DNA from: Bacteroidota bacterium
GTDB lineage: Bacteria; Bacteroidota; Bacteroidia; Bacteroidales; FEN-979
NCBI GenBank assembly: GCA_026391845.1
Contig: JAPLDG010000313.1
Span: 1 to 45,932 of the forward strand
Length of the DNA: 45,932 nucleotides
Direction: 5' to 3'
A program made the translations under genes and the position numbers. Below are positions 16,249 to 44,536 of the stretch, in pieces. Below the pieces are notes generated by a model. The model ran no database searches. It worked only from the letters and a program-made list of their open reading frames with translations, and was not told the DNA's origin. The first letter of the stretch is position 1, and each line of letters begins with the position of its first letter.

Positions 16249-16269
16249 TTATTTTAACTTCCGGGAAGT

Positions 16270-19200: not shown

Positions 19201-22200
19201 AGCCAGGTTGTGAACAGAAGGAGGGGATTGTGATTCATAACAACCCAGATCGATTATTTGCCCACCGTCGACAGCGTCGAATTTGCGCGGGTTGCCGTCC
19301 AGGTCGGTGGCGATGGAGGTAGCAGCATCATTGCCCGCATCGATCGCTGGAGAGCAGGTTAGCAAGTGCAGGTCACCATTGGCACCATTGATAAACATCG
19401 GATCTGCGTTGAGATTCCCCGTCCCGGCATAGACTCCTGATGCCTGCTGGACAATGGAATAGGTGATCGTCGGACTGCTGCCGGAGAAATCTTCGATGGA
19501 ACTGCTGTTTCCCCAAAGGATGCAGTTAGTCAGCAACGGATGGGCGTTAGACACGTTCGTCATAATACCCCCGTTTGATGATGCGGAATTTCCTGAAAAG
19601 CTGCAGTTCATCAATACTATCGAAGAGGTATAATTATAAATGGCACCGCCGCTTACCGCTGTATTTCCGGTAAAAATAGCGTTGTTAACCGTAGGATTGT
19701 TGCTCCTGTCGGATATTCCACCACCTGCATTGGCAGTGTTTCCTGAAAAGATACACGATGCAACCACCGGAGAGGAGGATGCTCCATTATCCATGCCTCC
19801 CCCATAACCATCGGTCCTATTCCCGCTGAAAGTGCAATGGGTCATCATGGGAGAACTGGATCCGTCATTGTACACGCCACCCCCGTTCGAAAAAGCATAA
19901 TTGGAGCTAATAATACAATGGGAAATGGAGGGAGCGGCGACAAAATTATAGATCCCGCCACCGTAGTTCTGGTTGCTGCCTCCATTGGCATTCCCGCCCC
20001 GGATGGTAAAACCGTCCAGGATAGCGCTGCCATTCAGCGGACTGCCATTAAAAAAGGTATTGTTGACAACGTGGAAACTGTTGTCAGCAATGTTCGCAAA
20101 ATTTGGTCCATCATCACCCTGAAGGTCGCCACTCAGGATCGTCACGTTGGTATTCCGGTCCCGTTGGCTAACCTGGGTCTCGGTTCCATTAAAACCTCCA
20201 TAGATGGCCAGATTGTTCCGCATAACAAAGGAGGCACTCCGGTCGGTGCCGGAGGTGGGCTTATAGGTGCCTGCCGCTACCCATATCTGCGTTACGCCGG
20301 AACAGGCACTGGTCAGGGCGCTTTGCAGACTGGTGAAAGCATCATTCCATGAGAATCCGGTATTAGTTCCGGTGGCGCCTGTTTTCACGTAGAGAATACC
20401 GGCCGGGCAGCATACATTCCCTTCATCGGTACTCCCGTTGCAGTTATCGTCAATCCCATTGCAAACCTCTGTAACCCCCGGATGGACAGCAGGATTGGAG
20501 TCATTGCAATCGAGGCTGTTTAAAACATAGCCTGCGGGCTGGGTGCATGAAAGAGTGGTCACGGCAAAATTGCCATATCCGTCGTTATCCGAATCGGCAT
20601 ACCAGGTCTTATACCCGGCCGTCGATTCAGTCCAGTTGGAGGTGGTCCCGGTGAGGCCGAACCCGCTCAGGTCTCCGTGAAACTGGTTTTCCGCAAAATT
20701 CTCTACCGTATTGATTCCGTTGTTGTTGCTTCCTGCTGCGCCGTGGTCGAATTTGTAATAGAGCTTCAGCCCGGTTTGTGGTGTGCCGACCCCGCACATG
20801 CCTGCCGCGATTTGTGCCTGGGAGCGCACCACGTTCCATATCCGTAATTCGTCGATGGAACCGTTCATGAATTCAGAATTTCCGTCAAGCGATCCCAGGA
20901 TCATCGCGGCAGTCATGACCGGCAGGTAGGCGCTGTTGGTAAACTTGGTCTCTATGAGCTGGCCATCAAGATACGACCGGAATCCTGCAGGATCGATGCG
21001 ACGCCAGGTAAAGGCCATGTGGTGCCAGTTGCCATCGTTGTATCCGCTCCCCGCAGAGAGTCCCTGACCGGTTGCATCATCCCATGAGATAAGATGCCGT
21101 CCACCCGGGGCGCAGGCTGCAAAATAATCTCCTCCCGACTGAGCATGAACGGCATTCTGACAGTTGGAACCTTTAAACCAGTACTCCACGGTGAGTGCAT
21201 CGCCGCCATTGATGATCGGGCTTACGCCGCAGTCGGGAATGGTCACATAATCATCCACACCATCTAATGTCAAGGCATTGTTGTTCGTCGTCGGAGGATA
21301 TGCATGAGCAGAGAGTGTTGCAGGGGTCGCATAGGTGGTCTGCCCGCTGTTTGAACAGGCGATCGCGCAGCGGTACTGGCCGGCGGCAGATGCTACATAG
21401 GTCGAGCCGTTCTGCCCCGAAATATTCTCAAACAAAGAGTTTGCCTCGTTGAACTTCTGCCATTGAAACGAGATTCCACTGTTGGTATAAAGAGTTTGCA
21501 ATGCAAGGGTTACCGTGCTGCCCGGGCAGATCACTGAACTGGCCGGCGTTACGGATGTGGCATCCGGTGCCCCGCTGCAGGGAACACTTTGGTAAATGCT
21601 GATCACATAATCCTCTACGGTTGCATAACTTATGTCGCCGCAGGGATACAGGTGCACCGGAGGATAATCCGGGTCGTTGCTTGCCCCGACAACCCGCATC
21701 AGGGCGTTCCCGGTCAATGCATTCGCCGGGATATTGATCGTTCCCGTAACCAGACCACTTTTCCGTCCAAGGTATATCATTTCACCTGCATCATGGAAAT
21801 CAAGATCATGATTGAAGTCGATATAGACAAAAAAGAATTCTGGGTTATAACTTCCTGACTGAATGGAGACCGGATAGGTTGATCCACGCGCCAGGTCCGG
21901 CGCAGGAACTGTCGATTTGTAATCCTCATACCAATCCGTTGAGTTGCTGGAGTTATTGAGTGTCGAAAGGGTGATATTTCTAACATAATCAAAGTCGGCA
22001 TAATAAGCAGCAGGCATGCAGTAACACCCGAGAAAGGAGGAGAAACTCACCTGCAGGGGAACGGATGTTCCGGTATTTCCGGCACAGGATACATCACACT
22101 TGTAATATCCCTGGACATTGGTAACATATTGTTCTTCCGTGCTAAGGCCCGGTGCATTGGAATATGTGGAGCCATTGGCCGAGAACTTCCACTGATAGGT

Positions 22201-22968
22201 CACGCCGCTCCCGTAGGTGGGATATTGAAGGCCAAGTAACGTATAACTGTTCTGGCAAAAAGAGGTTATGGTTGAAGTGGTCGCTCCCGGAGCCGGAGTT
22301 CCGGAACACCCGGAAGTGGTATAGGAGAATTTGATGTTGGGCTTGTAGCCAAAAATCTGAAGGTAGTCGCCTGAAAAAACATTGCATTTCGGGTCATCAC
22401 CACATATAGCTGCTATGGAGCCCGTCGCTCCCGGCGTAACCCTTAGACCTCCTGCAGGGTATTCATAAGTATTTGGTCCGGTGCAGGTATTCACAACAAT
22501 GTTGGAGGTTCCGTTCCAGACAAACCCGGTTGTAAAAGGAATCATCTGGAAGCTTCCTTCCGGAACGACCACCGGTATGAATGTAAAGGCGGGCCGGACT
22601 AAGGTAAGGTCAGCTTCGATCATCGTGTCGGCAAGATCCTGGGACGTATTTCCCAAACTTATCGTATAATTGGTCAGGCTGACGGCCGATTCTGAAATGG
22701 AATATCCCATCCCCGTGATCGTTGCGCCGGAGGGCATCCCGGCAGCTACCAGTTCAGCAGCCGTATAGACGAACTGCATATGGCTGCTCACAAAATCCCG
22801 GTCGACAGGATCCAAATAGTAGCCCGCCTCAGACAGATGGTTGGTATTCTGGGTTCCGGTTCCGATGATGACGCTTTGCCCCATCGCGTTGGTGCAAAAC
22901 AATAATACAAAGAGAACAAAGGAATTGATTTTAGTTAAAGACTTCCTGAATGTGTAACGATAATTCAT
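16270..22968 (-). CDS. Giant multidomain T9SS-secreted surface protein (GEVED, three LamG/concanavalin-like, MopE-like Ca-binding, right-handed beta-helix, choice-of-anchor-D-like, T9SS type A sorting domain)
   Basis: 2232 aa; LamG blocks (NALTLDGVDDYVTIPDCG..., LSLSGNQQYLLTPN..., NALNFDGIDDQVSISPCG...); DSDNDGYGN...DCNDSNPAVHPGVTEVCNGIDDNCNGSTDEG; beta-helix NYGGGIYNFVAAPSISHCIISSN; C-terminal SLYPNPTSGIFTLMSRES...GLYFVKIKTGNQNETIKLVKTR. Confidence 0.93.
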   Translation of the reverse strand: MNYRYTFRKSLTKINSFVLFVLLFCTNAMGQSVIIGTGTQNTNHLSEAGYYLDPVDRDFVSSHMQFVYTAAELVAAGMPSGATITGMGYSISESAVSLTNYTISLGNTSQDLADTMIEADLTLVRPAFTFIPVVVPEGSFQMIPFTTGFVWNGTSNIVVNTCTGPNTYEYPAGGLRVTPGATGSIAAICGDDPKCNVFSGDYLQIFGYKPNIKFSYTTSGCSGTPAPGATTSTITSFCQNSYTLLGLQYPTYGSGVTYQWKFSANGSTYSNAPGLSTEEQYVTNVQGYYKCDVSCAGNTGTSVPLQVSFSSFLGCYCMPAAYYADFDYVRNITLSTLNNSSNSTDWYEDYKSTVPAPDLARGSTYPVSIQSGSYNPEFFFVYIDFNHDLDFHDAGEMIYLGRKSGLVTGTINIPANALTGNALMRVVGASNDPDYPPVHLYPCGDISYATVEDYVISIYQSVPCSGAPDATSVTPASSVICPGSTVTLALQTLYTNSGISFQWQKFNEANSLFENISGQNGSTYVASAAGQYRCAIACSNSGQTTYATPATLSAHAYPPTTNNNALTLDGVDDYVTIPDCGVSPIINGGDALTVEYWFKGSNCQNAVHAQSGGDYFAACAPGGRHLISWDDATGQGLSAGSGYNDGNWHHMAFTWRRIDPAGFRSYLDGQLIETKFTNSAYLPVMTAAMILGSLDGNSEFMNGSIDELRIWNVVRSQAQIAAGMCGVGTPQTGLKLYYKFDHGAAGSNNNGINTVENFAENQFHGDLSGFGLTGTTSNWTESTAGYKTWYADSDNDGYGNFAVTTLSCTQPAGYVLNSLDCNDSNPAVHPGVTEVCNGIDDNCNGSTDEGNVCCPAGILYVKTGATGTNTGFSWNDAFTSLQSALTSACSGVTQIWVAAGTYKPTSGTDRSASFVMRNNLAIYGGFNGTETQVSQRDRNTNVTILSGDLQGDDGPNFANIADNSFHVVNNTFFNGSPLNGSAILDGFTIRGGNANGGSNQNYGGGIYNFVAAPSISHCIISSNYAFSNGGGVYNDGSSSPMMTHCTFSGNRTDGYGGGMDNGASSSPVVASCIFSGNTANAGGGISDRSNNPTVNNAIFTGNTAVSGGAIYNYTSSIVLMNCSFSGNSASSNGGIMTNVSNAHPLLTNCILWGNSSSIEDFSGSSPTITYSIVQQASGVYAGTGNLNADPMFINGANGDLHLLTCSPAIDAGNDAATSIATDLDGNPRKFDAVDGGQIIDLGCYESQSPPSVHNLAVIENGPTSFCQGGSVTLSVARGGNGLSLSGNQQYLLTPNLKPAFPDNSMTVEIWFKADSHGVVATELDPPVPNAGWHDSQIEVIPDGHVLVRVWPLDPVVLGSISFGQWHHAVVRYNAATNMLDGFLDGVLSSGSVNGVRQSPGAQYWAFGATDATNLGSGAWFTGQFDEIRIWNTARSNADIIQNYDRTVAFNSPNLVAYYTLDQTTGTTAFDSSPNGYNGNLINSPAWVVPSSSPLGGSVLWSNSSTTPSIVVTQSGSYSYQVAHSVGCPDFSTNSTVSVTAIPNVSTNDFGQNEWIVYAWNAGGASSSGETSWNTNFSGYYIDTNLDFNSATFWEINGSPSDAPGYYGCAVSIDNHSFSAKRQGFPCGYYRLDVPGHDDEAQLLFNGTMVWSHGGCCDSHSWVWTGWLGATDRVEFRITEGGGQSYGHLAFTLLGGNIPPITTSNALNFDGIDDQVSISPCGSSTPLVNGGDAITVEYWFKGLSSQSAVRMQPAGDTYIVAAWANSIHILSNDLGTNSGLPVGNGFNDGNWHHIAFTWQRNTVNGFTSYLDGQVVAQRNSADSPLPVITGGLFLGALGGSSEFTNGSLDEVRIWNVARTPSQIRAGMCSLTLPQNGLVLYYSFDYGVADGSNTAINTIGNLAQPGAFDGHLGNFAMNGTASNWVAGSAREGIELQGGSPAITIENGDPMPGVADNTDFGSVADGSSLGYTYTIRNTGVVDLAVTSISTTGAGASFFSIGAVAPASPVPGYGSASFTVTFLPTLPGLQTATVQLAFSGCSPGEYTFAIQGMGTCAILAPDFRSVQNVTVTATSRFEAVNAVTVAGSGSLVTVAPGGNATFLAGAKVIFLPGTLVQGGGHLHGYIETGTICGSTAPLAPVLTAGEQTTESVAEKNSFSLYPNPTSGIFTLMSRESIPAGNITVEIYGLCGDRMLKESMTGEKRHEFDLSGIPAGLYFVKIKTGNQNETIKLVKTR

Positions 22969-23035
22969 GGCGATTTTGTTTTGATTGATTCCAAATAATT
23001 AGATACAGCAAAATTCCGGGTTCACACTGAGAAGG

Positions 23036-23077
23036 TGGTGGACTATCGTCTCAAAATGGTGGACTATAATCTCAAAA
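23036..23077. promoter_or_regulatory. Two tandem 21-bp repeats upstream of the giant surface-protein gene, possible operator for the adjacent HTCS AraC-type DNA-binding domain
   Basis: TGGTGGACTATCGTCTCAAAA (23036-23056) and TGGTGGACTATAATCTCAAAA (23057-23077); 19/21 identical, 68 bp upstream of the gene start. Confidence 0.55.
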
Positions 23078-23129
23078 AGGAAAAATAAATTCTCAGGATG
23101 AAATGAAAAATTTCATATTCAATGAGATA

Positions 23130-26100
23130 TCACGCCTCCGACTGGAAATCGCTCGGCGTCATGCCATTGGATTCTGTAAACAACTTGCTGAAATATTTGG
23201 GATCGTTGTAGCCAACCTGGTAAGCCACTTCAGATATATTGAGTCCGCCGGCCTTAAGCAGGGACCTGGCCTTCTTCAGACGGATGGCATTGAGGTGCTC
23301 TGAAACGGAGCGACCGGTCAGCGTGGCCAGTTTGCGATATAGTTGGGCCCGGCTCATGCCGATCTCCCGGGCTAGCAATTCCGGGGAAACATCCGGGCTG
23401 GCAAAGTGGGTTTCCATGAGGGCATTAAATTTTCTGACAAAGGCATCTTCAGGGGCTGTGATTTCATCGGGCAATGGGAGAATCTCCCCGGATGCGGTGG
23501 GTTGTACCCCGGAAAAGCGAGCCTGGAGGCTCTTCTGCCGGGCAATGAGCTGCTCAACCCATACCAGTAGCTCCTCTTCATGGAATGGTTTGGAAAGATA
23601 GGCATCCGCTCCCCGTTGTAATCCTGCAATCCTCGATTCCACCGTCACGCGGGCGGTGAGAAGGATAATGGGAATATGACTGGTCCGCTGATCATTTTTA
23701 ACAAAATCGCACACTTCAAAACCATCCTTCTCAGGCATCATCACATCGCTGATAATCAGGTCGGGAATGATCTCCAATGCCTTTTCAATGCCTGCCCGGC
23801 CATTGAAGGAAAATTCGAGGTGGTATCGATCCCTGAGACAAGTGGCCAGGTATTCCGTTACATCAGGGTTGTCTTCGATCAGCAAGACCGTTTTTGCCGT
23901 CTCCGCCTTGTCCTGATGCGACAATCCGGCAGTAAAGACATCGGGACCCGGCTGTTCATAAAACGCCCCGTCCGTCATCGATGCATGATTGGATATGGGC
24001 AGCCTGACAATGAAAACCGTGCCGCCTGATGTCCCTGGAACCGGGCTTTGCGCTGAAATCACTCCGCCCATCGCTGTGATCAGCTCCCTGGTAAGTGAAA
24101 GGCCGATCCCGCTTCCCCCGGCCCCGCCGGCCGGTAGATTAGAACCATACATTGTATTGAATTCCTGGTTCTTCGCCTGGAAAAAACGGTCGAATAGTCT
24201 GGGAAGATCCTCCTGCGGCACCCCCCTTCCGGTATCTGAAACGGTCATGACAAGCTCAGCTTTGTCGCGGGTCACCTGCATGCTGACCTTCCCGCCTGAA
24301 GGAGTGAACTTGATCGCGTTCGATAGCAGATTATAAACGATCTGCATCAGCCGTTCCGGATCATAATCCATCAGAATCTCCGACTGGTCGCTGCCCAGCC
24401 GGAGCATCACATTCTGGGCATTGGCGAGCGAATGAAGGCTCTCGGTGATATACCTCATGTAGGCCAGCACATCGCCCTGTATATAATTCATCTTCAGGTT
24501 GTGGCTCTCCAGTTTTGAGAGATCCAGGATATGATTGATGAGTCGTAGCAGGTTTTCGCCATTGCGTTTGATGAGGGCCAACGGACGGCTGGGTTCCTCC
24601 CGTTCGCTCATCAGCCGTTGGGTCATGCCCAGGATAACCGTCAGTGGGGTCCGGAATTCATGGGTAATATTGGTAAAAAAACGGGTTTTGAAATCATTGA
24701 GGCTTTTCAGCCGGTTCGCCTCCGCCCTTCTCAGCCGTTGTTGGAGCTGGTACTGGTTGAACAGAAACCCGGACACGATAAAAAGGGCGGTATATACAAG
24801 GTAGGCCAGCCAGGTGCGGTACCAGGGGGCGCGGATCACGATATCCAGGGAGACCGGTTGCTTGTTCCATATTCCATTGCAGTTGGCGGCTTTAACCCGG
24901 AAGGTATATTTCCCAGGTGAAAGATTAATGTATTGTGCCGAATGTTCAAAACCCCGGTGAATCCAGGGTGCTTCAGCTCCCTCCAGGTAATAGGAGAACT
25001 GGTTTTGCCAGGGTTCTGTGAAATCCATGGCAGCGAATTGAAGCTCAATATTATTCCGGGCATACGGTAAATCAAGCTTATCCAGGAAGGCAACATCGTG
25101 GCCGATCGGCGCTCCGGAATCTCTCGGATTCACTACCATCCCGTTGATCCTCAAACCGGTGAACATTACCGGAGGAGGTTTTGAATGAACAGCGAGTACC
25201 TTCGGATCGAACACCGTAAGCCCGTTGACACCTCCAAAATACAGCTGTCCAGAGGAAGCCTTGAAGTAAGCATAAGTATTGAATTCATTATCCTGAAGGC
25301 CGTCTGACTGGCTGAAATGCCATGCCGATCCCTTTTCCGGCGAAAAGCAGGTAATCCCCCTGTTCGTTGAGATCCAAAGTCGTCGGGGTTTTTCATCATC
25401 CGGTAAAATTCCGTAGATGACATCATCCGACAGCAGTCCTTCGGATGATGGGATATTTTTGAACCGTTCCCCGGGGATATCGAGCAGATAGAGACCTGCG
25501 CCGTTCGTGCCAACCCAGAGCAGGTTCGGGTGATCAGGATCGGGAAGCAGTGATTTGATGCTGTTGACAGGCAAACTGCCCGGGTCTCCTTTTCTTGCAG
25601 TCAATATAGAAAAGCGAAAACCAGAATCTGAACGAAGTTCGGCTTTGACGAGCCCATCATCGGTTCCCATCCACCAGGTACCGTCGATGCCTCTTTCCAG
25701 CGCAATGATTTGTGCCGGAGCATCCGCCCTGAGAGGAAACAGCCTGAACTTCCTGTCAGCCAGTGTGTACCGGAGCATCTGCCGGGGCGTGACCACCCAC
25801 ACCTGACCGGGCTCAACATATTTCAGTGCAGGCAGGTTGCAGATGAATTCCTTCGGGAGAGGAATTGTCTCTTTCAAACCTGTTTCCGGGTTATAGCGCA
25901 TGAGCATCGACTGGTTCAGACGGGGGTCTTTGAAGGTCCACCAAAAAGCGCCGTTTTCAGTGGCACAAATGTTATTCCCATACGGGGGAACCATTCCCAG
26001 TTCTTTAAAATCCACTGCTTTGCCACTCCCGATGTCGAGGACTCTGGAAAACCAGCCCCCCTGTCGCACATCGATCAGCAGGACATGGTTGATTCCGTTA

Positions 26101-27182
26101 AATACAGGCTTACAGTAGATGGACACCCCTTCCAGGTAGTTTGTAAAAGCGCCCTTCCTCGGGCTGAACTTGAGTATGCCATGGGCATCTGTGCCAAACC
26201 AGAGAATTCCTGTACGATCGGTCAATCCGCACTTCACCGGCTTCCCGACTTCGAAATCCCATGCCAGCCGGGGCCCTGCGGCAGATAAAGTCAAATCCAG
26301 ACCACAGACACGTGTGCCGGTCCTGATCCAAAGAATTCCCGCTTCGCAATCAGCCTGCATGATGCCTGCCGGATCCACAGGCAGTGCGAATACCTTCCAG
26401 TTGCGACCATCATATCTGGCAATCTTATCCTTGCGGATCACCCAGGAGGCTCCTGCGATCTGAGGAAAAACGGAGGACGAAACATGTTCAGGTAACTTGA
26501 TGCCTCTGATCTCATCAGGCAGGAGGATCGATCGGATGGATCCTCCTCCGGGCTTGCGTACAAGAATACTGTCACGGGTGAGCAGCCATTGCTTTTTCTC
26601 ATCCTGCGAGAATCGGAAGCCCTGGAAATCTTTTGGAACCGGGTACTTCTCTACTTTGAAAAGCGGGCGGCATTCTCCATTTCCCGCCGGCCGCATGTAC
26701 GATAAATCCTCCGGGTCAGAAGGCCAGCTGATATGGTACAGCCGATTTGATTCACTATTCCAAAACCAGACCCAAACGCTGTTTTTTCCGAACGGATAAA
26801 CTGCTGCAAGAACCCCGTTGTTACCTCCAAAACTTCCGGGGATACCATAGAAGCGCTGTGTCCTGCAGTTGAACAGCATCGGCTCAGCAGCATTGGTGAC
26901 AACAAACAAAAAATTTCCAACCGCTGTAACATCGATTATGTCGTTGGAATTGAGAGAGAGTGAATCGAAAGGAAGGCTGTGGTATACCTTGAATTGATAA
27001 CCGTCATACCGGTTCAACCCGTTCTTGGTGGCAATCCAGAGGAACCCGTCGTCATCCTGAGCGATGGAGGGAACAAAACCCTGGGAAAGCCCCTGTTCTG
27101 CCGAGATGCTCTTCCACAGGGCATCCTGGCCTTGCAAGAGTATCCCGATCAGCAGGAACATGAAAGTCAGGAGTATTCTCAC
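23130..27182 (-). CDS. Hybrid two-component system protein (HTCS): beta-propeller/Y_Y_Y sensor, histidine kinase, receiver, AraC HTH
   Basis: DALWKSISAEQGLSQGFVPSIAQDDDGFLWIATKNGLNRYDGYQFKVY propeller start; YRVKAANCNGIWNKQPVSLDIVIRAPWYRTW Y_Y_Y; THEFRTPLTVILGM HisKA; LLIEDNPDVTEYLA...ISDVMMPEKDG REC; ISEVAYQVGYNDPKYFSKLFTESNGMTPSDFQ AraC HTH. Confidence 0.95.
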   Translation of the reverse strand: MRILLTFMFLLIGILLQGQDALWKSISAEQGLSQGFVPSIAQDDDGFLWIATKNGLNRYDGYQFKVYHSLPFDSLSLNSNDIIDVTAVGNFLFVVTNAAEPMLFNCRTQRFYGIPGSFGGNNGVLAAVYPFGKNSVWVWFWNSESNRLYHISWPSDPEDLSYMRPAGNGECRPLFKVEKYPVPKDFQGFRFSQDEKKQWLLTRDSILVRKPGGGSIRSILLPDEIRGIKLPEHVSSSVFPQIAGASWVIRKDKIARYDGRNWKVFALPVDPAGIMQADCEAGILWIRTGTRVCGLDLTLSAAGPRLAWDFEVGKPVKCGLTDRTGILWFGTDAHGILKFSPRKGAFTNYLEGVSIYCKPVFNGINHVLLIDVRQGGWFSRVLDIGSGKAVDFKELGMVPPYGNNICATENGAFWWTFKDPRLNQSMLMRYNPETGLKETIPLPKEFICNLPALKYVEPGQVWVVTPRQMLRYTLADRKFRLFPLRADAPAQIIALERGIDGTWWMGTDDGLVKAELRSDSGFRFSILTARKGDPGSLPVNSIKSLLPDPDHPNLLWVGTNGAGLYLLDIPGERFKNIPSSEGLLSDDVIYGILPDDEKPRRLWISTNRGITCFSPEKGSAWHFSQSDGLQDNEFNTYAYFKASSGQLYFGGVNGLTVFDPKVLAVHSKPPPVMFTGLRINGMVVNPRDSGAPIGHDVAFLDKLDLPYARNNIELQFAAMDFTEPWQNQFSYYLEGAEAPWIHRGFEHSAQYINLSPGKYTFRVKAANCNGIWNKQPVSLDIVIRAPWYRTWLAYLVYTALFIVSGFLFNQYQLQQRLRRAEANRLKSLNDFKTRFFTNITHEFRTPLTVILGMTQRLMSEREEPSRPLALIKRNGENLLRLINHILDLSKLESHNLKMNYIQGDVLAYMRYITESLHSLANAQNVMLRLGSDQSEILMDYDPERLMQIVYNLLSNAIKFTPSGGKVSMQVTRDKAELVMTVSDTGRGVPQEDLPRLFDRFFQAKNQEFNTMYGSNLPAGGAGGSGIGLSLTRELITAMGGVISAQSPVPGTSGGTVFIVRLPISNHASMTDGAFYEQPGPDVFTAGLSHQDKAETAKTVLLIEDNPDVTEYLATCLRDRYHLEFSFNGRAGIEKALEIIPDLIISDVMMPEKDGFEVCDFVKNDQRTSHIPIILLTARVTVESRIAGLQRGADAYLSKPFHEEELLVWVEQLIARQKSLQARFSGVQPTASGEILPLPDEITAPEDAFVRKFNALMETHFASPDVSPELLAREIGMSRAQLYRKLATLTGRSVSEHLNAIRLKKARSLLKAGGLNISEVAYQVGYNDPKYFSKLFTESNGMTPSDFQSEA

Positions 27183-27922
27183 CTGGCGATTATTTTCAGA
27201 AATTCATCTTTACGGATGCGGGAAACAGGAACTATTTCGTCATTGCTCATCACGACATATCCTCCTTCACCCCTGACATACCTGGTTACTTCGTGAAGAT
27301 TGATGAGGTGAGACTTATGTATCCGGAAGAAATTGTGTTTCAGCAACCGTATTTCAAATTCACCGAGTGGTTTTGAAACCATGATTTTATTGCCGTCTTT
27401 CATGGAAAAAACGGCATACGCACGATCGGCTTCAGCATGGATGATTTCATCAATGTTCACAAAAACAAAACCATCGGATGTAGAGAGCGGAAGTTTTTTA
27501 AACACAGGCACCTCTTCCTGCATTTTCCGCAAATCGGGACTGCCAGCCTGAAATTTCTTTATGAATTTCACCATGGCAGCTTCCATCTCAGGATAAGCAA
27601 CCGGTTTCAGCAGGTAATCGAGCGCGCTGTGACGGATCGCATCAATGGCATAATTGCTGTGCGAAGTGGTGATGATCACCTCAAAGTGCATCTCCTCCAT
27701 GGAAGCCAGCAGGTCAAACCCTTTGCCATCCGGTAATTCTATATCAAGGAAAACCAGGTCAACCTCGTTTTCCTGCAGAAACAGGCGGGCCTGCACGATG
27801 GATTCTGCAACAGAACAAACATGGATGTAGGGAAAATGAAGGGTAAACAGATCCTTCAGGACTGTGCAGAAGAATGGATCATCTTCAACGATCAGGACTT
27901 TGACATCTCTCATGTTCATCAT
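27179..27922 (-). CDS. LytTR-family response regulator
   Basis: KVLIVEDDPFFCTVLKDLF...VDLVFLDIELPDGKGFDLL REC; C-terminal FKKLPLSTSDGFVFVNIDEIIHAEADRAYAVFSMKDGNKIMVSKPLGEFE...FFRIHKSHLINLHEVTRYVRGEGGYVVMSN LytTR; 4-bp overlap with the HTCS start. Confidence 0.95.
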   Translation of the reverse strand: MMNMRDVKVLIVEDDPFFCTVLKDLFTLHFPYIHVCSVAESIVQARLFLQENEVDLVFLDIELPDGKGFDLLASMEEMHFEVIITTSHSNYAIDAIRHSALDYLLKPVAYPEMEAAMVKFIKKFQAGSPDLRKMQEEVPVFKKLPLSTSDGFVFVNIDEIIHAEADRAYAVFSMKDGNKIMVSKPLGEFEIRLLKHNFFRIHKSHLINLHEVTRYVRGEGGYVVMSNDEIVPVSRIRKDEFLKIIAR

Positions 27923-27937
27923 ACGAATATTAGTGAT

Positions 27938-31213
<3,276 letters not shown>

Positions 31214-36665: not shown

Positions 36666-38525
36666 ATGAAAATATTTTATTTGAATGCCTGGATAAAAAA
36701 AATGGGATTGACGATTGTCATTATCCCTCTGCTATTTGCCTTTCCAAACACGGTACTTTCGCAGGTTGTCGCAAAGAACCCGTTGTGTTACGGTGAACCT
36801 GTTCAGCTCAAGTGTAATTTCAATGCAGGTTGCAGTAGTCCCGGCGCAACTTTCACCTGGCACAATACCAATAGTTCCTGGATAACACATGTAAAAAACC
36901 CGGTTCTTTATCCCCCGGGTGGGTTCGACATAGGAGATGGGCAGACCGCGGATGGGAGTTCCCTGTGCAATGGTGAAGGTTACGCCACCGACTCGATCTT
37001 TCTTACCATTCACTATGCACCTCCACCGGCTGGATTTTACAGCGGATCTGTACATGTGATGATAAATTCTCCGTATGTAGATATCTCAGGAACCGCTTAT
37101 GCTTATATTGGCAACCAATATTATCCTTTAGATGGCGGACATGCATACCTTTTTAATTCGATCAACGGGGTACTTGACACACTGGTAACGGTACCGGTTA
37201 ATAATGTTGGACAGTTTACTGTTCATAATACCTGTGGAGTGGATGGCTCTCCGATTCTGATCATCCCTAATGGAGATGCCCAGATACCGACCTACCTGGG
37301 GGATGCAGTTTCATGGAATGATGCAACAGCGGTGGTAGCCTCATCCACGGTTAATGTCGGGGCAATCCACATGATCGACTATGCTCCGCAGATTATAACG
37401 GACGTTGCAGCTTTCATCAAGGGGATTGTCTATAAAAATACCTCTGCGAAGGCCAATGATCCGATCGACAATGTGGGTGTTGTCATAAAGAAGAGCGCGT
37501 CACTGAGAGGTTATGCAACATCTGATGATAATGGGTTATTCACACTGGGGAAGTTTGAGCAGGGAGATTACAGCATTAATAGCAATTATCCGGGCATCCC
37601 CATGTATACCAGGAATGGTGCAAATATTATCAGGGTGTTTAATCCAATTGATACAATTAATCTGACAATCAGTGTCGTGTGTGATTCGGTCATGGTCGAT
37701 TCAAATTTCATACGGGTTTCCCCGACATATGTGGTTTCGCCTTCGTGCAGCGTTCAGGATGAAGTGATTACGAATGGTTATACAACATGCTATAATGCCC
37801 TGCAGAATCTAATCGTTTCAGGATCCGACCCGGATGGTGTGGTTGTTAACAATGGAGGCACTGCTTACTTTGTCGCAGGGCAAAAAATAAATTTCAAGCA
37901 AGGGTTCAGGGTGGAGAACGGAAGTTCGGTGTGGGGTCATATCACAACAACCGGCCAGTTCTGCAGCCAGTTGCTGGGATCAAACAATTCACTTGGCGGG
38001 ATGACGATTTCAGGAGGGGAGAGCAGGTGTTTCCAGGCAATGGATGCGCTTTCAACTGGTGCGAACGGCGCGACCTTCCTGGTAAAAAATGGTGCAACGG
38101 CGCATCTGACAGCCGGAAAGAAGATTGTCATGTATCCCAACACCCATGCTGCTTCCGGGGCCTCTTTCCATGCCTATATCTCGACCGACGGAACCTATTG
38201 CAATGAACCGAAAGCTCCGGTTACCGACTATGACGGAAATGAAGACGCGATAGCAGAGAAAGAACCATCTTTGGATCATCAGGCTTTTTTCAAAGTTTAT
38301 CCTGACCCGACCTCCGGCTCATTCACTCTTGAATTATCAGCTGAACCGGGTGAATCAACCGTATCTGTCACCTGTTATAACAATATGGGTTCCCTGGTTA
38401 TGGAGAAGGATTTTTTTTCAGGGAAGAAGCATGAATTATCCCTGGCCGGTCATGCGCCGGGAATATACCTGCTCAGAGTCAGGATGAATGGCAATACAGG
38501 GATTAAGAAAATGATCAAACAATAA
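36666..38525 (+). CDS. Exported protein with 3-coathanger-stack-like repeats and T9SS C-terminal sorting domain
   Basis: NALQNLIVSGSDPDGVVVNNGGTAYFVAGQKINFKQGFRVENGSSVWGHI and a second copy; C-terminal FKVYPDPTSGSFTLELSAEPGESTVSVTCYNNMGSLVMEKDF...GIYLLRVRMNGNTGIKKMIKQ. Confidence 0.87.
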   Translation: MKIFYLNAWIKKMGLTIVIIPLLFAFPNTVLSQVVAKNPLCYGEPVQLKCNFNAGCSSPGATFTWHNTNSSWITHVKNPVLYPPGGFDIGDGQTADGSSLCNGEGYATDSIFLTIHYAPPPAGFYSGSVHVMINSPYVDISGTAYAYIGNQYYPLDGGHAYLFNSINGVLDTLVTVPVNNVGQFTVHNTCGVDGSPILIIPNGDAQIPTYLGDAVSWNDATAVVASSTVNVGAIHMIDYAPQIITDVAAFIKGIVYKNTSAKANDPIDNVGVVIKKSASLRGYATSDDNGLFTLGKFEQGDYSINSNYPGIPMYTRNGANIIRVFNPIDTINLTISVVCDSVMVDSNFIRVSPTYVVSPSCSVQDEVITNGYTTCYNALQNLIVSGSDPDGVVVNNGGTAYFVAGQKINFKQGFRVENGSSVWGHITTTGQFCSQLLGSNNSLGGMTISGGESRCFQAMDALSTGANGATFLVKNGATAHLTAGKKIVMYPNTHAASGASFHAYISTDGTYCNEPKAPVTDYDGNEDAIAEKEPSLDHQAFFKVYPDPTSGSFTLELSAEPGESTVSVTCYNNMGSLVMEKDFFSGKKHELSLAGHAPGIYLLRVRMNGNTGIKKMIKQ

Positions 38526-38543: not shown

Positions 38544-39848
38544 ATGGAAAATAAATTAAACGCTCTGATTGTTTGCTGTGGTTTATTCTCTTACAAGGAT
38601 GGTGAGAAGGCTGTTCTTTTTCCTGAAACCACCTACAACGACTTTGAAGACCTGTTCGAAAAAGATCCCGGAATAAAAATACTCAGGCAGATTTTTTACC
38701 CGAATTTCACCAGTCTGATAGTTTCGAAAAATTGTCATAAGCAGGACCATCCGTGTACCAGCTTGTTTCAGCATCTTCGGCTAACGGATGTCAGCGGGTT
38801 TAAAAACCTGATTCTAACAAGTGATAAAGAGGAGAGTGTTAAATTTTCCATTGCCAAAGTCGATATTTTTCTTTTTCCGGAAATAATTTCCGAATCATAC
38901 AGGGAAAAACTGGGGATTTATGCATTTCACATTCACCTTGCAGATGAAAATGCGGGCTTTGAAACCATCTCCTCATTCATTCATCGCATTCGGTTATTTG
39001 AAAGCAATAATCGCATAAGGAAGGATGAAACTGATTTTACAACGATTGATTTCATTCAGCAGAAGATTCTTTCCAACCGGATTTCATTGGATTTGATTGC
39101 CAATATTACCGGGAATAAGCTGAAGGTGTTTACCGTGATCAATTCTGCCAGTGAAATTGATGATATCAATAAAAGTTTGCTTGATATCGGAACAGCTCAG
39201 CATATTACAGCCAAAAGCCGGGAGCATTCAACCAAAGGTTCTGAAGAACTATATCATGAATTGTTGAAATCAAACACTATTTCGATCTACTCGAACTGGA
39301 AAGCCCTGGCAGCCTTTGATTCATTTACTGTTATCGGCACTGAACTGAATAATATTGAAACGACCTGGGGGACAACCTATCTATTGATCTATATTCAGTG
39401 TGTTAAAATGAAATTTTATTTGTTTCACGTAAATTCAGCGTTGTCAAATATAAGTTTTTTTGAAAAATATTCAGAGAAGCTGCGTACAAATTTTACCAAA
39501 TTCATCAATAGCAACAACCTTTTTGCCATATCGTTTAACATTCTGCCGAATAAAATCTATCATGCGATAAAAAATTCATTGGAAATTGATGAAGAGGTGG
39601 AGGAACTTGAAAAAAAGATCATCAAAATAGGCAGGATCATCAATGAAAAAAATGATAAGAACCTGAACAAGTTAATTTTCCTCCTTGCCTTGCTGGGAGT
39701 GGTCAGTGTGATCTTTCACGCATCTGAGTTCATCATGAAGGTGTTTTCGATCAGCGAGCATTATTATCCACACCTGGGTTTAACAATAGCCGGCACGGTG
39801 GTGCTGGCGGTTTCAGCTTATTTTTTGTTGCTAAGAAAAAGAGGATAA
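38544..39848 (+). CDS. Uncharacterised protein with C-terminal coiled coil plus two TM helices (CorA-like topology)
   Basis: 434 aa; EIDEEVEELEKKIIKIGRIINEKNDKNLNKLIFLLALLGVVSVIFHASEFIM...LGLTIAGTVVLAVSAYFLLLRKRG; no GMN motif seen. Confidence 0.7.
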   Translation: MENKLNALIVCCGLFSYKDGEKAVLFPETTYNDFEDLFEKDPGIKILRQIFYPNFTSLIVSKNCHKQDHPCTSLFQHLRLTDVSGFKNLILTSDKEESVKFSIAKVDIFLFPEIISESYREKLGIYAFHIHLADENAGFETISSFIHRIRLFESNNRIRKDETDFTTIDFIQQKILSNRISLDLIANITGNKLKVFTVINSASEIDDINKSLLDIGTAQHITAKSREHSTKGSEELYHELLKSNTISIYSNWKALAAFDSFTVIGTELNNIETTWGTTYLLIYIQCVKMKFYLFHVNSALSNISFFEKYSEKLRTNFTKFINSNNLFAISFNILPNKIYHAIKNSLEIDEEVEELEKKIIKIGRIINEKNDKNLNKLIFLLALLGVVSVIFHASEFIMKVFSISEHYYPHLGLTIAGTVVLAVSAYFLLLRKRG

Positions 39849-39861
39849 TTTACAGCGGAAC

Positions 39862-42800
39862 TTATTTTCCCTGCATATCAAATTCTTTCATTTCCTCCCT
39901 GAGATCAGGTATGATCCCCAGCAAATGCTTTTGGTTTACATTGGTTAAAATATCTCCGGCCCGAAGCGGCCATTTTTTAATTAATATTTTTTCCTGGGTA
40001 TTGGTGATGATCAGTAAAGATCGGCAATCTTCAGAAAATTGTGCAAAATGTGTGTGGCCTTTTGTATCCCCTGAATTGATGATATTCAGCAATTCCCCCT
40101 TTCGCGACCAGATCATGATCACATACGGTTTCTTTGAAAGTGTGAAAAAGTAATCACTGTTCGCCGAAAACCCGATCTCCTCGATAGCTGTTCTATGTGA
40201 ATTATCAAGGGTGGTAATATAGACGCCATCGCCACTCCAAAGTATTGCCTGCCCGTCGGATGAAGCGGTCAGTATCGATTTTCCATCCGGAGAATACCGG
40301 GCCTTTATGATATCCGCCTTATGCAATTTCAGCTGCTGAACAATTGTTCCGTCAAGGTTCCTGATGATTGCAACCTTGTTTGCAGAACCGGTAATGATTC
40401 TTTTTCCATCAGGAGAGAAGGAGGCGCAGCGCAATGGATCGTTGTCTGATTTGAATTCTTTGAGTTTGGTTCCCTTGAAATCCCAGATCCTGGCTGCACC
40501 ATCACTGCATGCAGTTAATATGGTATTCCCGTCGGGTGAAAATTCAGTACTTCTCACTTCAAAGGGATGGTCACATCTTGCAATCTCCTTTCCGGCGGTA
40601 TCCCAGATCCTGGCTGTTTTGTCAAATGAAGAGGTCGATATAAATTGATTATCGGGGGAGATACTTACATCCATTCCAGGGCCCTGGTAACCGAAGTCCA
40701 GCAGCCGGTTTTTTTCAACATTGAAACAGCCAAGGCTGTTTTGCTGATTCAGGACGACCAACATTTTCATCTTCTGTGAAATGCGTGCATCAAGGGTTTG
40801 TGATGCCTTTCTATTGATCATTTCACATTCGTTGTTTCTCAGGACCCAGATTTTTATCATGCCATCTGCCGATGCAGTCACAACCGTATCATTGCCCCCG
40901 GCAAACCGTATCTCCCTGATGGCTGCCGCATGCCTTCTCAATTCAAACTGGAATTCCCCGTCGATGCTCCGTACCTGGGAGATCCCATCGTCTGAACCGA
41001 TGGCAAAATATTTACTGTCTGCTGAAACAGTAAAATGTCCGATGCAGCCGATCCCTGCCTGAACTTCTTTGATAACAGTTGCAGGAACAGAATTACCCCA
41101 GATGATGGCTGATCCGTCATCAGAAACGGTGATGATAAAACGCCCGTCGGGTGTAAAATCACTTCGGGTCACACCGCCTGTATGCTTGGCCAGTACCTGC
41201 AGCTCTTTTCCTGACAAATCCCAGATCCTGGCTGTTGCATCATCTGATGAGGTCACCACACGCATATTGTCGGGGGAAAAACCAATGTCGCGTAAAAATC
41301 CGGTATGCCCTTTGAGAACAGCCACACATGTACCGCTGAAATCCCAGATTCTAGCAGTTTTATCATATGAAGTTGTTGCAATATATTTGCTGTCGGAGGA
41401 AAAATGAATTGAGTTTATGGTCGATTCGTGGCCGGTCAGGCTGCCGTGTTTTTCACATCGCAAGGTCTCCTTGTTGAAATCCCAGATCGTGCCTGTTCCT
41501 GCCATAGATGCAGTTACAATATATTTTCCGTCCGGAGAAAAACCGGCAATATAATTCCTCTGATCTTTGTCTTTAATGGTCTGCAGCAACCGGCCGGTTG
41601 TATCCCACAGCCGGACCGTACTGTCGATCGAACTCGTTACGATATACCGGCCATCGGGTGAGAATCTTGCAAACATCACTTTTTGGTGATGCCCTTTTAA
41701 AACAGCAAGTTCTTTGCCGTTCATGTCCCAGATGCGTGCCGTGCTGTCAAATGAAGCGCTTACAATTTTTCTTCCAAGGGGGGTGTAATCCAGACTGTAA
41801 ACGTCATTCGTATGGCCCTCAAGGTTGTTGCTGAACGGATAGTAATCAGCAGTTTCATAACTCAGCGAGAGTGCCTCCATCGCCAGGTGACCACCGTAGA
41901 TTTGAAATGCTTTTTCAGCCAGTCTGAAGCTTAATGTAGGATTTTTATCAATGGTTAAAAGACTATAGGAGGCGAGTTCATTTGAAGTAGCAATGCTGGC
42001 AATTTTTGTGGCCTTGTTCCGCTCGATCAGCGCCCATATCGTAAAACCGGACATGATGATCAATGCCGCCAGAAGAGCGGAAATGATGGTGGCTCTTATT
42101 CTCGTTCTTTTTGATTGGAGCTCTTTCTGACTTTTGGCAATAAAGTCCTTTTTGTCCTGGTTCAGAAAAAGACGATCAAGATATGGTTTAATGTAATTAA
42201 AATCGCTTTCGCTGAGAAGAATTCCTCTGTTGAGGTACTGATCATATGTGTTGGCAATGATCTCTTTGATTTCATTCACCTCTTTTTCCGCCAGGGTGAT
42301 TTTTTCGAAAATTTTTGACGCAAGACTGTCGTGCCTTAACTCATACTTTCCATTTTCATCCTGATCCCGGATGATCCTGAGGGTAATAAATTTATGAATT
42401 AGCGCCCTCACCCTGTTGATATCCACATCGCTGCCGGGTGTCCTGATGTCGGAGGCAATATCTTCGTCAGTAACCTGACGTTTGGTGCCTTTACCGGAAA
42501 CGAATGATTTTAAAATCTTTAGGGCTAACGATTTATCCTGATCATTTAACTGAGAAATCTCAAACTCGAGAAACGTTCCCAGAAGATCTTTGACACTTCC
42601 AACCCGTTTCACAAGATCTTTCGAAAAGACGATCTCCTGCGATCCTGTCATCCCTTCCAGAGCCAGCCAGTACAAGCGATCTAAAAAAATTTGAAGGTAA
42701 GTGAGGTCAATTTCTGCATTTTCAGGACTTAACTCTTTTAAAATCTCCTCTGAACAATCCTTTTCCAGCCGGATTCCATGAGCGTTACACAAACCTTTGA

Positions 42801-43395
42801 TTACTTCCAGCGCGTTTTGACGGGTAACAGAATTTATTCTCAGTCTGTTGGATAGGAATTCGGGTATTCTTTTTTCAAATTCAGTCAGGCTGGCGAGGTA
42901 CTCCTCCCGGATGGAAAAAATAAATTTACATTGAAGATTCGACCCGATGATGCTTTTTACAGTTGTGATCAATTCATCCCGTTCCTTCTCATTGCCAAAA
43001 ATGAAAATTTCCTCAAACTGATCGAAAATGAAGTAGATGGGGCGGAAATGGTCTAAAAATATGCGCTGAACAATTTCCGTTATGGGTTCATTCCGGGCAT
43101 TTGACAACGGTTTATTCAAGCACTTTTGCAGGGTAGTTCCAAGGCTTTTATTTATATCAGAACCTCTCCTGATTTGAATCGGGAACCAGTCGCTTTCCTG
43201 AATTTTATTTGCCAGACCACAATTGATCAGTGAAGACTTTCCAATGCCCGATACGCCGAAAAGAACCAATATCCTGCTCTTGTAAACGCGGTAGTATAGC
43301 TCTTCAATTTCAGCATCCCTTCCGAAAAACGTAGCTTTGTCCTCCCTGGCGTAGCTGTCAAGGAATTTAAAAGGACTTTTTGGTTGATTTCCCAT
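39862..43395 (-). CDS. nSTAND1-type NTPase with TM helix and ~14 WD40 repeats
   Basis: FFGRDAEIEELYYRVYKSRILVLFGVSGIGKSSLINCGL Walker A; PIYFIFDQFEEIFIFG Walker B; TM RATIISALLAALIIMSGFTIWALI; repeated SPDGKYIVTAS...ARIWD blades. Confidence 0.93.
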   Translation of the reverse strand: MGNQPKSPFKFLDSYAREDKATFFGRDAEIEELYYRVYKSRILVLFGVSGIGKSSLINCGLANKIQESDWFPIQIRRGSDINKSLGTTLQKCLNKPLSNARNEPITEIVQRIFLDHFRPIYFIFDQFEEIFIFGNEKERDELITTVKSIIGSNLQCKFIFSIREEYLASLTEFEKRIPEFLSNRLRINSVTRQNALEVIKGLCNAHGIRLEKDCSEEILKELSPENAEIDLTYLQIFLDRLYWLALEGMTGSQEIVFSKDLVKRVGSVKDLLGTFLEFEISQLNDQDKSLALKILKSFVSGKGTKRQVTDEDIASDIRTPGSDVDINRVRALIHKFITLRIIRDQDENGKYELRHDSLASKIFEKITLAEKEVNEIKEIIANTYDQYLNRGILLSESDFNYIKPYLDRLFLNQDKKDFIAKSQKELQSKRTRIRATIISALLAALIIMSGFTIWALIERNKATKIASIATSNELASYSLLTIDKNPTLSFRLAEKAFQIYGGHLAMEALSLSYETADYYPFSNNLEGHTNDVYSLDYTPLGRKIVSASFDSTARIWDMNGKELAVLKGHHQKVMFARFSPDGRYIVTSSIDSTVRLWDTTGRLLQTIKDKDQRNYIAGFSPDGKYIVTASMAGTGTIWDFNKETLRCEKHGSLTGHESTINSIHFSSDSKYIATTSYDKTARIWDFSGTCVAVLKGHTGFLRDIGFSPDNMRVVTSSDDATARIWDLSGKELQVLAKHTGGVTRSDFTPDGRFIITVSDDGSAIIWGNSVPATVIKEVQAGIGCIGHFTVSADSKYFAIGSDDGISQVRSIDGEFQFELRRHAAAIREIRFAGGNDTVVTASADGMIKIWVLRNNECEMINRKASQTLDARISQKMKMLVVLNQQNSLGCFNVEKNRLLDFGYQGPGMDVSISPDNQFISTSSFDKTARIWDTAGKEIARCDHPFEVRSTEFSPDGNTILTACSDGAARIWDFKGTKLKEFKSDNDPLRCASFSPDGKRIITGSANKVAIIRNLDGTIVQQLKLHKADIIKARYSPDGKSILTASSDGQAILWSGDGVYITTLDNSHRTAIEEIGFSANSDYFFTLSKKPYVIMIWSRKGELLNIINSGDTKGHTHFAQFSEDCRSLLIITNTQEKILIKKWPLRAGDILTNVNQKHLLGIIPDLREEMKEFDMQGK

Positions 43396-43402
43396 CTTTT
43401 AT

Positions 43403-44422
43403 TCAGGATGACAAAACCGACAAAATTTCATTAAACTCATCGACCAGTGTGCTATAGTTATGCAGTGACCGGAGGTCACAAACTTCGGGTGCCTCGGTGC
43501 CAACATACATTAAATGGCCGTCACTGTATTTTGAATACAAATAAATATCCCCGATAATGCTAAACCTTTTAAGATCATTGATAACCTCGGATTTTGTATC
43601 AATAACCAAAGGGGACAGATTAAGGTATTCCCCGATTGACTTCGTTTGCTTCATCAGCAGAACTGAATTGCTTTCGGTAAACTTCAACCCTTCGATCCTG
43701 GCCGTGCTGAAATCGGAATGAGTGTTATGAAGTAAATCCATGCTGTGATGAAAAAATGCTTCGTGATTTTTTGACTTCACAACCTTAATATCCTTCACAT
43801 ACACCAACTTGTAATTGACCAGGAATGCAATTTTTGATAACAATCTGGTTAATTTTTCCTCGAAAACGATACAATCTCTTTCAATATCCTGGTCAGTTGG
43901 ATTGGATTGAAAATGCATGAGGATGTTTCTTGGAAGGACCAATGAATTCAGGTTTTCATAAAACCCTTTATTGAAGTTCTCGGAAATCTCAGGGATAAAC
44001 CATTCGAAATTCTGTTGTTTCAGAAAATTCCCGATGGATGTTATCAGCCAGGTATAATCCCCCAAACTTAAGAGCGGGAAACGGTGTTTGAACTCTTTTT
44101 TAAAATTTTCCGGAATTGAAATCCGGTTTCTGACCTTTTCTTCCATGAGTTGGGCGACCATGATAAAACTGATGAACTGCAACGTTCTTTCAAAGGTCCG
44201 GAAGATATGTGTTAGTAAGTCGCGTCCCAGGGTTGTCTTGGTAAACAACCTGCGAAGCTCAATCCCGATCGGCCATGGGAAATTCTCAACCATTTCATTG
44301 CCCAGTTTCGGGAAATTAATGGAATCATCATCGTTATACCGGATATCATTGGCTAACCTTGGCTTAACTTTGACCATTTCATCAAATACTTGCCTGATCA
44401 GGTCTTCTGTATTGTTCAGCAT
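43403..44422 (-). CDS. Uncharacterised protein with HEPN-like domain, cotranscribed with the STAND-WD40 gene
   Basis: Helical region FRTFERTLQFISFIMVAQLMEEK...LSLGDYTWLITSIGNFL...LNSLVLPRNILMHFQSN with an R-N-x3-H (RNILMH) HEPN signature at 43913-43930; 7-bp gap to the STAND gene. Confidence 0.65.
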   Translation of the reverse strand: MLNNTEDLIRQVFDEMVKVKPRLANDIRYNDDDSINFPKLGNEMVENFPWPIGIELRRLFTKTTLGRDLLTHIFRTFERTLQFISFIMVAQLMEEKVRNRISIPENFKKEFKHRFPLLSLGDYTWLITSIGNFLKQQNFEWFIPEISENFNKGFYENLNSLVLPRNILMHFQSNPTDQDIERDCIVFEEKLTRLLSKIAFLVNYKLVYVKDIKVVKSKNHEAFFHHSMDLLHNTHSDFSTARIEGLKFTESNSVLLMKQTKSIGEYLNLSPLVIDTKSEVINDLKRFSIIGDIYLYSKYSDGHLMYVGTEAPEVCDLRSLHNYSTLVDEFNEILSVLSS

Positions 44423-44505
44423 TGTATAGTACGATCATCTAGGTTGTCAAATTCTTTCTCTTCAGTGGTTGTTGTGATTGTGGAACACAACGGGAATAGG
44501 CTCAA

Positions 44506-44536
44506 CAAATATAATCATATCATGTGCTAAAACCAA
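44506..44536 (-). promoter_or_regulatory. Bacteroidota-type promoter for the HEPN-like/STAND operon
   Basis: Minus strand TTG (44534-44536), 20-nt spacer, TATATTTG (44506-44513), 84 nt upstream of the start codon. Confidence 0.65.

What the first reader, a model, noticed from the sequence alone, without database searches (positions are those of the whole stretch)
39862..44536. HEPN-like protein + nSTAND-WD40 ATPase operon with its own promoter: candidate conflict/defence module
Seen: two minus-strand genes 7 bp apart with a clear TTG-N20-TATATTTG promoter just upstream. The downstream gene encodes a STAND NTPase (GVSGIGKSS, FDQFEE), a TM helix and ~14 WD40 blades (two propellers). The upstream gene encodes a helical protein with RNILMH, matching the R-N-x3-H signature of HEPN RNases. 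Established: STAND NTPases are common sensors/switches in prokaryotic immunity, and HEPN proteins are common RNase effectors in abortive infection. Inference: WD40-STAND senses a trigger and the HEPN-like protein acts as effector or signalling partner; this exact pairing is not one I recognise as a named system.
Basis: partly seen in the sequence, partly recalled or inferred. Interest (0 to 1): 0.82.

Follow-up and report, generated by a model that had tools for sequence, protein, structure and literature searches.

The report
HEPN–membrane STAND–WD40 conflict module
In an uncultured Bacteroidales-type bacterium, a probable RNA-cutting protein is encoded next to a membrane-anchored sensor ATPase, and this partnership recurs across many relatives with the killing part swapped for a caspase or a TIR domain, which makes it look like a bacterial counterpart of animal and plant immune sensors.

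Summary
A (43403-44422, 339 aa, RNILMH) and B (39862-43395, nSTAND1 + one TM + WD40) lie 7 bp apart behind a Bacteroidota-type promoter conserved in two sister genomes. The pairing is not chance: among 393 genomes of the order, 18 have A, 20 have the B-clade NTPase and 16 have both (Fisher 6e-23). B-clade genes lie within 1.4 kb downstream in 16 of 19 resolvable A loci. The RN-x3-H motif is invariant in 16 stand-alone A proteins (27-91% identity). It is lost in relatives fused to a caspase or TIR domain, so the effector looks exchangeable. The C-terminal half of A is shared by all forms and is the likely docking part. Every examined B-clade protein has a TM helix with positive charge on the NTPase side. 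Sensors differ (WD40, FGS, LRR, TPR, GldM periplasmic domains), which suggests an outside sensor and an inside effector. A convergent CorA-like membrane gene (C, 38544-39848) belongs to the same island. Best reading: a membrane-anchored STAND switch that turns on a HEPN RNase, probably abortive defence. The HEPN fold was not confirmed (low-confidence model), and no function has been tested. I call it a new variant of a known kind (STAND conflict systems).

The parts
44506..44536 (-). Bacteroidota-type promoter TTG-N20-TATATTTG upstream of A
   Evidence: Only exact match on either strand of the window; conserved at -114/-117 in L004 and L005
43403..44422 (-). Gene A: predicted HEPN effector, 339 aa (helical N-terminal ~210 residues, conserved C-terminal region 205-339 shared by all effector-swapped homologues)
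43913..43930 (-). RNILMH = RN-x3-H HEPN catalytic motif (residues 165-170)
   Evidence: R165, N166 and H170 are among 30 invariant columns in 16 homologues down to 27% identity
39862..43395 (-). Gene B: nSTAND1 NTPase - TM helix - WD40 propellers, 1177 aa
42316..43374 (-). nSTAND1 NTPase domain of B (Walker A 43231-43257; Walker B 43009-43026)
   Evidence: PF20703 E 3.2e-37; PF20703 match coordinates
42037..42093 (-). Single TM helix of B (residues 435-453), net +5 on the NTPase side
   Evidence: Hydropathy; found in every B-clade protein scanned
39976..41835 (-). WD40 beta-propeller sensor region of B (approximate limits)
   Evidence: PF00400 E 9e-88, 11 stretches
38544..39848 (+). Gene C: CorA-like protein with two C-terminal TM helices, 434 aa, convergent with B (13 bp between the stop codons)
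   Evidence: PADLOC CorA-like E 1e-11; conserved beside B in L004, L005 and G016; co-occurs with A across the order

Best explanation
A and B form a two-component, NLR-like conflict switch. B is a single-pass inner-membrane STAND ATPase with its NTPase in the cytoplasm and its WD40 sensor outside the cytoplasm. When the sensor meets a trigger (an envelope-side phage or rival event), B exchanges nucleotide and oligomerises. It then clusters and activates A, which docks on B through its conserved C-terminal half, and A's HEPN domain cuts RNA to stop growth or kill the cell. C is a CorA-like membrane protein of the same island, probably an accessory effector or regulator. Shown here: the genes, motifs, purifying selection, near-obligate A/B co-occurrence, the effector swap and the conserved TM helix. 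Inferred: membrane orientation, oligomerisation, docking, RNase activity, trigger and anti-phage role.
For: Co-occurrence: A in 18 of 393 order genomes, B-clade in 20, both in 16, Fisher 6e-23. Both A-only genomes have A at a contig end; two of the four B-only genomes carry a divergent A-like gene directly beside B. Adjacency: 16 of 19 resolvable loci have B within 1.4 kb downstream on the same strand, while these genomes hold only 0-9 nSTAND1 hits each. Other nSTAND1s in the same genomes are mostly only 20-28% identical to B. HEPN: R, N and H invariant across 16 proteins (P 6e-4 for three preset columns). Divergent members hit HEPN_RiboL-PSP (E 5.6e-4), HEPN_Apea (E 1.4e-3) and a Cas13a HEPN model (E 9.6e-5). 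Profile alignment to 17 RiboL-PSP HEPNs is centred on the motif (P 0.004, against at least 0.22 in 30 shuffled controls). Effector swap: Peptidase_C14 fusions E 4e-13, 7e-8 and 7e-3 (the last truncated) and TIR_2 E 1.2e-18 sit beside B-clade NTPases, and all have lost RN-x3-H. Topology: one TM segment in every B-clade protein scanned, with N-side charge +2 to +8. Two B-clade sensors are GldM domains (E down to 4e-18), periplasmic in the T9SS (PMC5790014).
Against: No experiment. The window's A has no Pfam hit. AlphaFold models had pLDDT 34 (full length) and 63 (helical part), and no HEPN structure was matched. The WD40 region shows dN/dS about 0.12 with no sign of an arms race. No copy of A in plasmid or phage collections. 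Three A loci lack an adjacent B. Orientation rests on the positive-inside rule and on analogy with GldM.
Confidence: 0.6

Rival explanations
1. Housekeeping or envelope-signalling switch: B senses the cell surface or the T9SS/gliding machinery, and A and C regulate RNA or ion flow as part of normal physiology, not defence.
For: Low dN/dS in all three genes; GldM-type sensors in two B-clade members; C homologues sit in operons with TPR-SpoIIE phosphatases; no mobile-element copies found.
Against: Patchy distribution (about 5% of genomes of the order; 3-4 of 19 in the genus); caspase and TIR domains in the same position; sensor variety typical of conflict systems as described in PMC8195603.
Confidence: 0.22
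2. A is not a nuclease but a helical adaptor with a fortuitous RNxxxH; the real effector is C or an unlinked protein recruited by A.
For: A has no Pfam hit and no confirmed fold; the A-like domain persists without the motif when fused to TIR or caspase, so the family certainly has an adaptor role too.
Against: R, N and H stay invariant across a split where overall identity is 27-29%, and are lost only where another domain, or an unidentified N-terminal extension, is attached.
Confidence: 0.15
3. A and B work as a toxin-antitoxin-like pair, with B restraining A until B is inhibited or degraded.
For: Tight operon with near-obligate co-occurrence.
Against: Stand-alone A genes without a neighbouring B exist in G343, G089 and G187, which keep a B-clade gene elsewhere; STAND ATPases with sensor domains act as activated switches in known systems.
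Confidence: 0.1

Closest known systems
nSTAND1-FGS conflict systems and the EAD principle (Kaur, Burroughs, Iyer, Aravind 2021, PMC8195603)
   Same: nSTAND1 NTPase with variable C-terminal sensors (FGS among them) and variable caspase/TIR effectors
   Different: Here the effector is a separate gene built on a HEPN-type module with its own constant C-terminal docking half; B carries a TM helix after the NTPase; the passages read name no HEPN effector for nSTAND1
HEPN-STAND fusions (Anantharaman 2013, PMC3710099, e.g. Npun_F6454)
   Same: HEPN effector coupled to a STAND NTPase with repeats
   Different: Single-chain fusions with TPR/S1; here two genes, nSTAND1-TM-WD40, and a HEPN family without its own Pfam model
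Two-gene STAND system with an inactive STAND fused to HEPN or GT4 (PMC8195603, GT4 section)
   Same: HEPN used as an exchangeable effector of a STAND system
   Different: There HEPN is fused to an eroded STAND; here A has no STAND domain and B keeps intact Walker motifs
Apaf-1 / TEP1-type NLRs (discussed in PMC13174449)
   Same: STAND NTPase with C-terminal WD40 propellers switching an effector
   Different: B is membrane-anchored and the effector is encoded separately
CorA-like effectors of PADLOC (type III CRISPR-associated, from background knowledge)
   Same: C matches the profile (E 1e-11) and has two C-terminal TM helices
   Different: No CRISPR locus was looked for or seen next to C; no GMN motif; homologues sit in TPR-SpoIIE operons beside nSTAND1

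Membership tests
HEPN RNase superfamily | R-x4-6-H (often RN-x3-H) motif conserved | tested here: met
   Invariant in 16 of 16 stand-alone members
HEPN RNase superfamily | Profile-level homology to known HEPN families | tested here: inconclusive
   Weak hits in divergent members only; hhalign P 0.004, probability 8%
HEPN RNase superfamily | Four-helix HEPN fold with R and H juxtaposed | tested here: inconclusive
   All-helical model, pLDDT 63 (82-84 around the motif), no HEPN match
HEPN RNase superfamily | RNase activity | not testable with these tools
   Needs a bench assay
STAND NTPase, nSTAND1 (PF20703) | Match above gathering score with Walker A/B intact | tested here: met
   129.5 bits against a cut-off of 27.1; motifs invariant in the clade
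Avs / AVAST or another PADLOC-listed STAND system | Match to PADLOC models for the STAND protein | tested here: not met
   B hits only a WD40-driven HEAT-ARM_XIII profile
HEPN-MNT toxin-antitoxin | Adjacent MNT nucleotidyltransferase | tested here: not met
   The partner is nSTAND1; no MNT-type gene beside A
CorA transporter (gene C) | GMN motif between the two TM helices | tested here: not met
   The sequence between and around TM1/TM2 lacks GMN
CorA-like effector (gene C) | Profile match and two C-terminal TM helices | tested here: met
   PADLOC CorA E 1e-11; TM 377-395 and 411-429

The most novel reading that the evidence does not exclude
A family of transmembrane bacterial NLRs: one conserved cytoplasmic STAND NTPase, exchangeable outside-facing sensors (WD40, lectin-fold FGS, LRR, and pieces of the T9SS/gliding motor protein GldM acting as built-in decoys), and one docking module that carries either an active HEPN RNase, a caspase or a TIR. 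A single effector may serve several sensors in the same cell.
Probability: 0.35. Interest if true: 0.85.

Novelty: new variant of a known kind. Interest (0 to 1): 0.64.

Why it matters
Characterised bacterial NLR-like defences are mostly cytoplasmic with a fused effector. Here sensing seems to be on the other side of the membrane, and the effector is a separate, swappable protein whose HEPN motif is lost when a caspase or TIR is attached. If true, it gives a clean natural experiment on how STAND switches dock effectors, and a candidate surveillance system for the Bacteroidota envelope and its T9SS motor.

Tried and rejected
AlphaFold of full-length A with three close sequences: pLDDT 34, unusable. 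The helical fragment gave pLDDT 63; Foldseek against PDB and BFVD gave no significant match. Viral-contig searches failed for lack of an answer from the machine, so carriage by uncultivated viruses is untested. No A in plasmid or phage records. PDB sequence search: nothing. Weak bSEFIR hit of A (E 0.011) not pursued. A search for an empty insertion site instead found a fourth cassette carrier (G016) cut by a contig end. Toxin-antitoxin reading rejected as main explanation because of unlinked A genes. First idea that C is window-specific was dropped.

Full report
Observation. A is 43403-44422 (339 aa), B is 39862-43395 (1177 aa), and the gap is 7 bp. B matches nSTAND1 (PF20703, E 3.2e-37) and WD40 (E 9e-88) and has one hydrophobic segment at residues 435-453. 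A carries RNILMH at 165-170. The promoter TTG-N20-TATATTTG (44536-44506) is unique in the window, and nearly the same element sits 114-117 bp upstream of A in two sister genomes.

Close relatives. In the genus, A was found in three of 19 genomes. A fourth, G016, shows the end of B plus C at a contig end. In the window and two sister genomes the order is the same: A, 7 bp, B, 13 bp, then C convergent. All three genes are under purifying selection. The neighbours differ, so the unit is A-B-C, perhaps with the secreted gene next to C.

Wider family. A profile of A found 18 of 393 genomes of the order, and a phylum-wide sample added one. I mapped the neighbourhoods. Of 22 A loci in the genus and order, three end at a contig edge. 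Of the other 19, 16 have an nSTAND1 gene on the same strand within 1.4 kb downstream. The exceptions are G089, G343 and G187 (5 kb away), and all three keep a B-clade gene in the genome. This tally was made by hand. The N-terminal part of these NTPases forms a recognisable clade (PFKFLDSY...FFGRD), 33-55% identical to B in most members, whereas other nSTAND1s in the same genomes mostly reach only 20-28%. Searching with that clade found 20 of 393 genomes, 16 shared with A, Fisher 6e-23. Both A-only genomes have A at a contig end. Of the four B-only genomes, G159 and G304 carry a divergent A-like gene directly beside B, G197 is fragmented, and G169 is a distant outlier. G430, G383, G089 and G187 hold one A and two to four B-clade genes, so one effector might serve several sensors. 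Genomes are related, so Fisher values overstate independence, but the families are spread over 15-16 genera.

Is A a HEPN protein? R165, N166 and H170 are three of 30 invariant columns in 16 stand-alone homologues down to 27% identity. Divergent members hit HEPN_RiboL-PSP (5.6e-4), HEPN_Apea (1.4e-3) and a Cas13a HEPN model (9.6e-5), all below curated cut-offs where such exist. A profile-profile alignment with 17 RiboL-PSP HEPN proteins from the same order centres on the RN-x3-H motif with P 0.004; 30 column-shuffled controls gave P 0.22 or more. The fold could not be confirmed: only three sequences could be given to AlphaFold, the model had pLDDT 63, and Foldseek found nothing significant. 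I hold HEPN at about 0.8.

Effector swap. In G098 (two loci) and G215, an A-like region is fused to a caspase domain (PF00656 E 7e-8, 7e-3 in a truncated copy, and 4e-13), overlapping or abutting a B-clade NTPase. In G159 it is fused to a TIR domain (TIR_2 E 1.2e-18) 15 bp before B. In G790 it carries an N-terminal domain that looks DUF4062-like by eye but had no Pfam match. In all five the RN-x3-H motif is gone, while the C-terminal half (KYKLVS.REI.V ... YLNLSPLVID) stays recognisable. Motif kept in 16 of 16 stand-alone and 0 of 5 fused gives Fisher 5e-5. The tree suggests only about two independent losses, with long unreliable branches. Two more A-like proteins with an unidentified N-terminal extension (G337, G304) also lack it. 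Inference: the C-terminal half docks on the NTPase, and the killing activity is either the HEPN site or an added domain.

Topology and sensors. The hydropathy scan found a TM segment just after the NTPase in every B-clade protein examined, with net charge +2 to +8 on the NTPase side. By the positive-inside rule the sensor is outside the cytoplasm. The sensors are WD40 (window, G208, G187 and others), FGE-sulfatase/FGS (G131, G233), LRR (G790), weak TPR (G107, G212) and GldM third and fourth domains (G187; weaker in G233). GldM/PorM spans the periplasm in the T9SS (PMC5790014), which agrees with the predicted orientation. That these GldM pieces are decoys is speculation.

Gene C. C has a CorA-like profile match (E 1e-11) and two C-terminal TM helices, but no GMN motif. 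It occurs in 8 of 393 genomes, five of which also have A (Fisher 6e-6). Elsewhere it usually sits in a TPR-SpoIIE phosphatase - C - 200-aa operon, fused to the phosphatase in G068, and beside a B-clade NTPase in G068, G343, G383 and G197. So C is linked to B-clade systems; its role is unknown, and an accessory effector or regulator is my guess.

Mechanism and standing. The simplest model is an Apaf-1-like switch turned outward: an outside trigger, NTP-driven assembly of B at the membrane, clustering of A, and RNA cleavage. Kaur et al. 2021 (PMC8195603) describe nSTAND1 with FGS sensors and caspase/TIR effectors, and Anantharaman et al. 2013 (PMC3710099) describe HEPN-STAND fusions, so the kind is known. 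The papers I searched did not show this two-gene membrane form. The library is incomplete, so absence there is not proof of novelty. Main doubts: no functional test, no confirmed fold, and a possible housekeeping role.

Noticed in passing
window 36666-38525 (+): Secreted protein with a T9SS sorting tail sits next to C; near-full-length homologues in the genus occur only in the four genomes that carry the cassette and lie beside or near C there. Could be a fourth component or just island linkage.
   Followed up: partly
L056, L057, L058, L059, L060, L061: Conserved operon TPR-SpoIIE phosphatase / CorA-like C / ~200-aa protein without Pfam match; phosphatase and C are fused in L056.
   Followed up: partly
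L028:142-2217 and L033:2564-4966: nSTAND1-TM proteins whose sensor is made of GldM third/fourth domains of the T9SS motor; possible built-in decoy.
   Followed up: partly
L057:8970-9770 (-): GldL_N-type membrane protein (E 3.9e-14) between a B-clade NTPase and the SpoIIE-C operon.
   Followed up: no
L033:4963-6216, L059:4653-5825, also near L043, L056, L058: AAA_14/DUF4143 ATPases (PADLOC PDC-S01 in the two scanned) recur beside or between A, B-clade and C genes; common in this phylum, so perhaps only hitchhikers.
   Followed up: no
L042:2-1318 and L108:4328-4798: A-like proteins with an N-terminal stretch of the type NQNIVVQDVSSSNITINVNG, which resembles effector-associated adaptor segments by eye; HEPN motif lost.
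   Followed up: no
L034:9874-12753 (-): TPR-PAS-SpoIIE protein directly upstream of A on the same strand, echoing the SpoIIE link of gene C.
   Followed up: no
window 14368-31213: Cluster with a TPR histidine kinase, a hybrid kinase with AraC-type output, a TPR hybrid kinase with Hpt, and a 2232-aa laminin-G surface protein with a T9SS tail.
   Followed up: no
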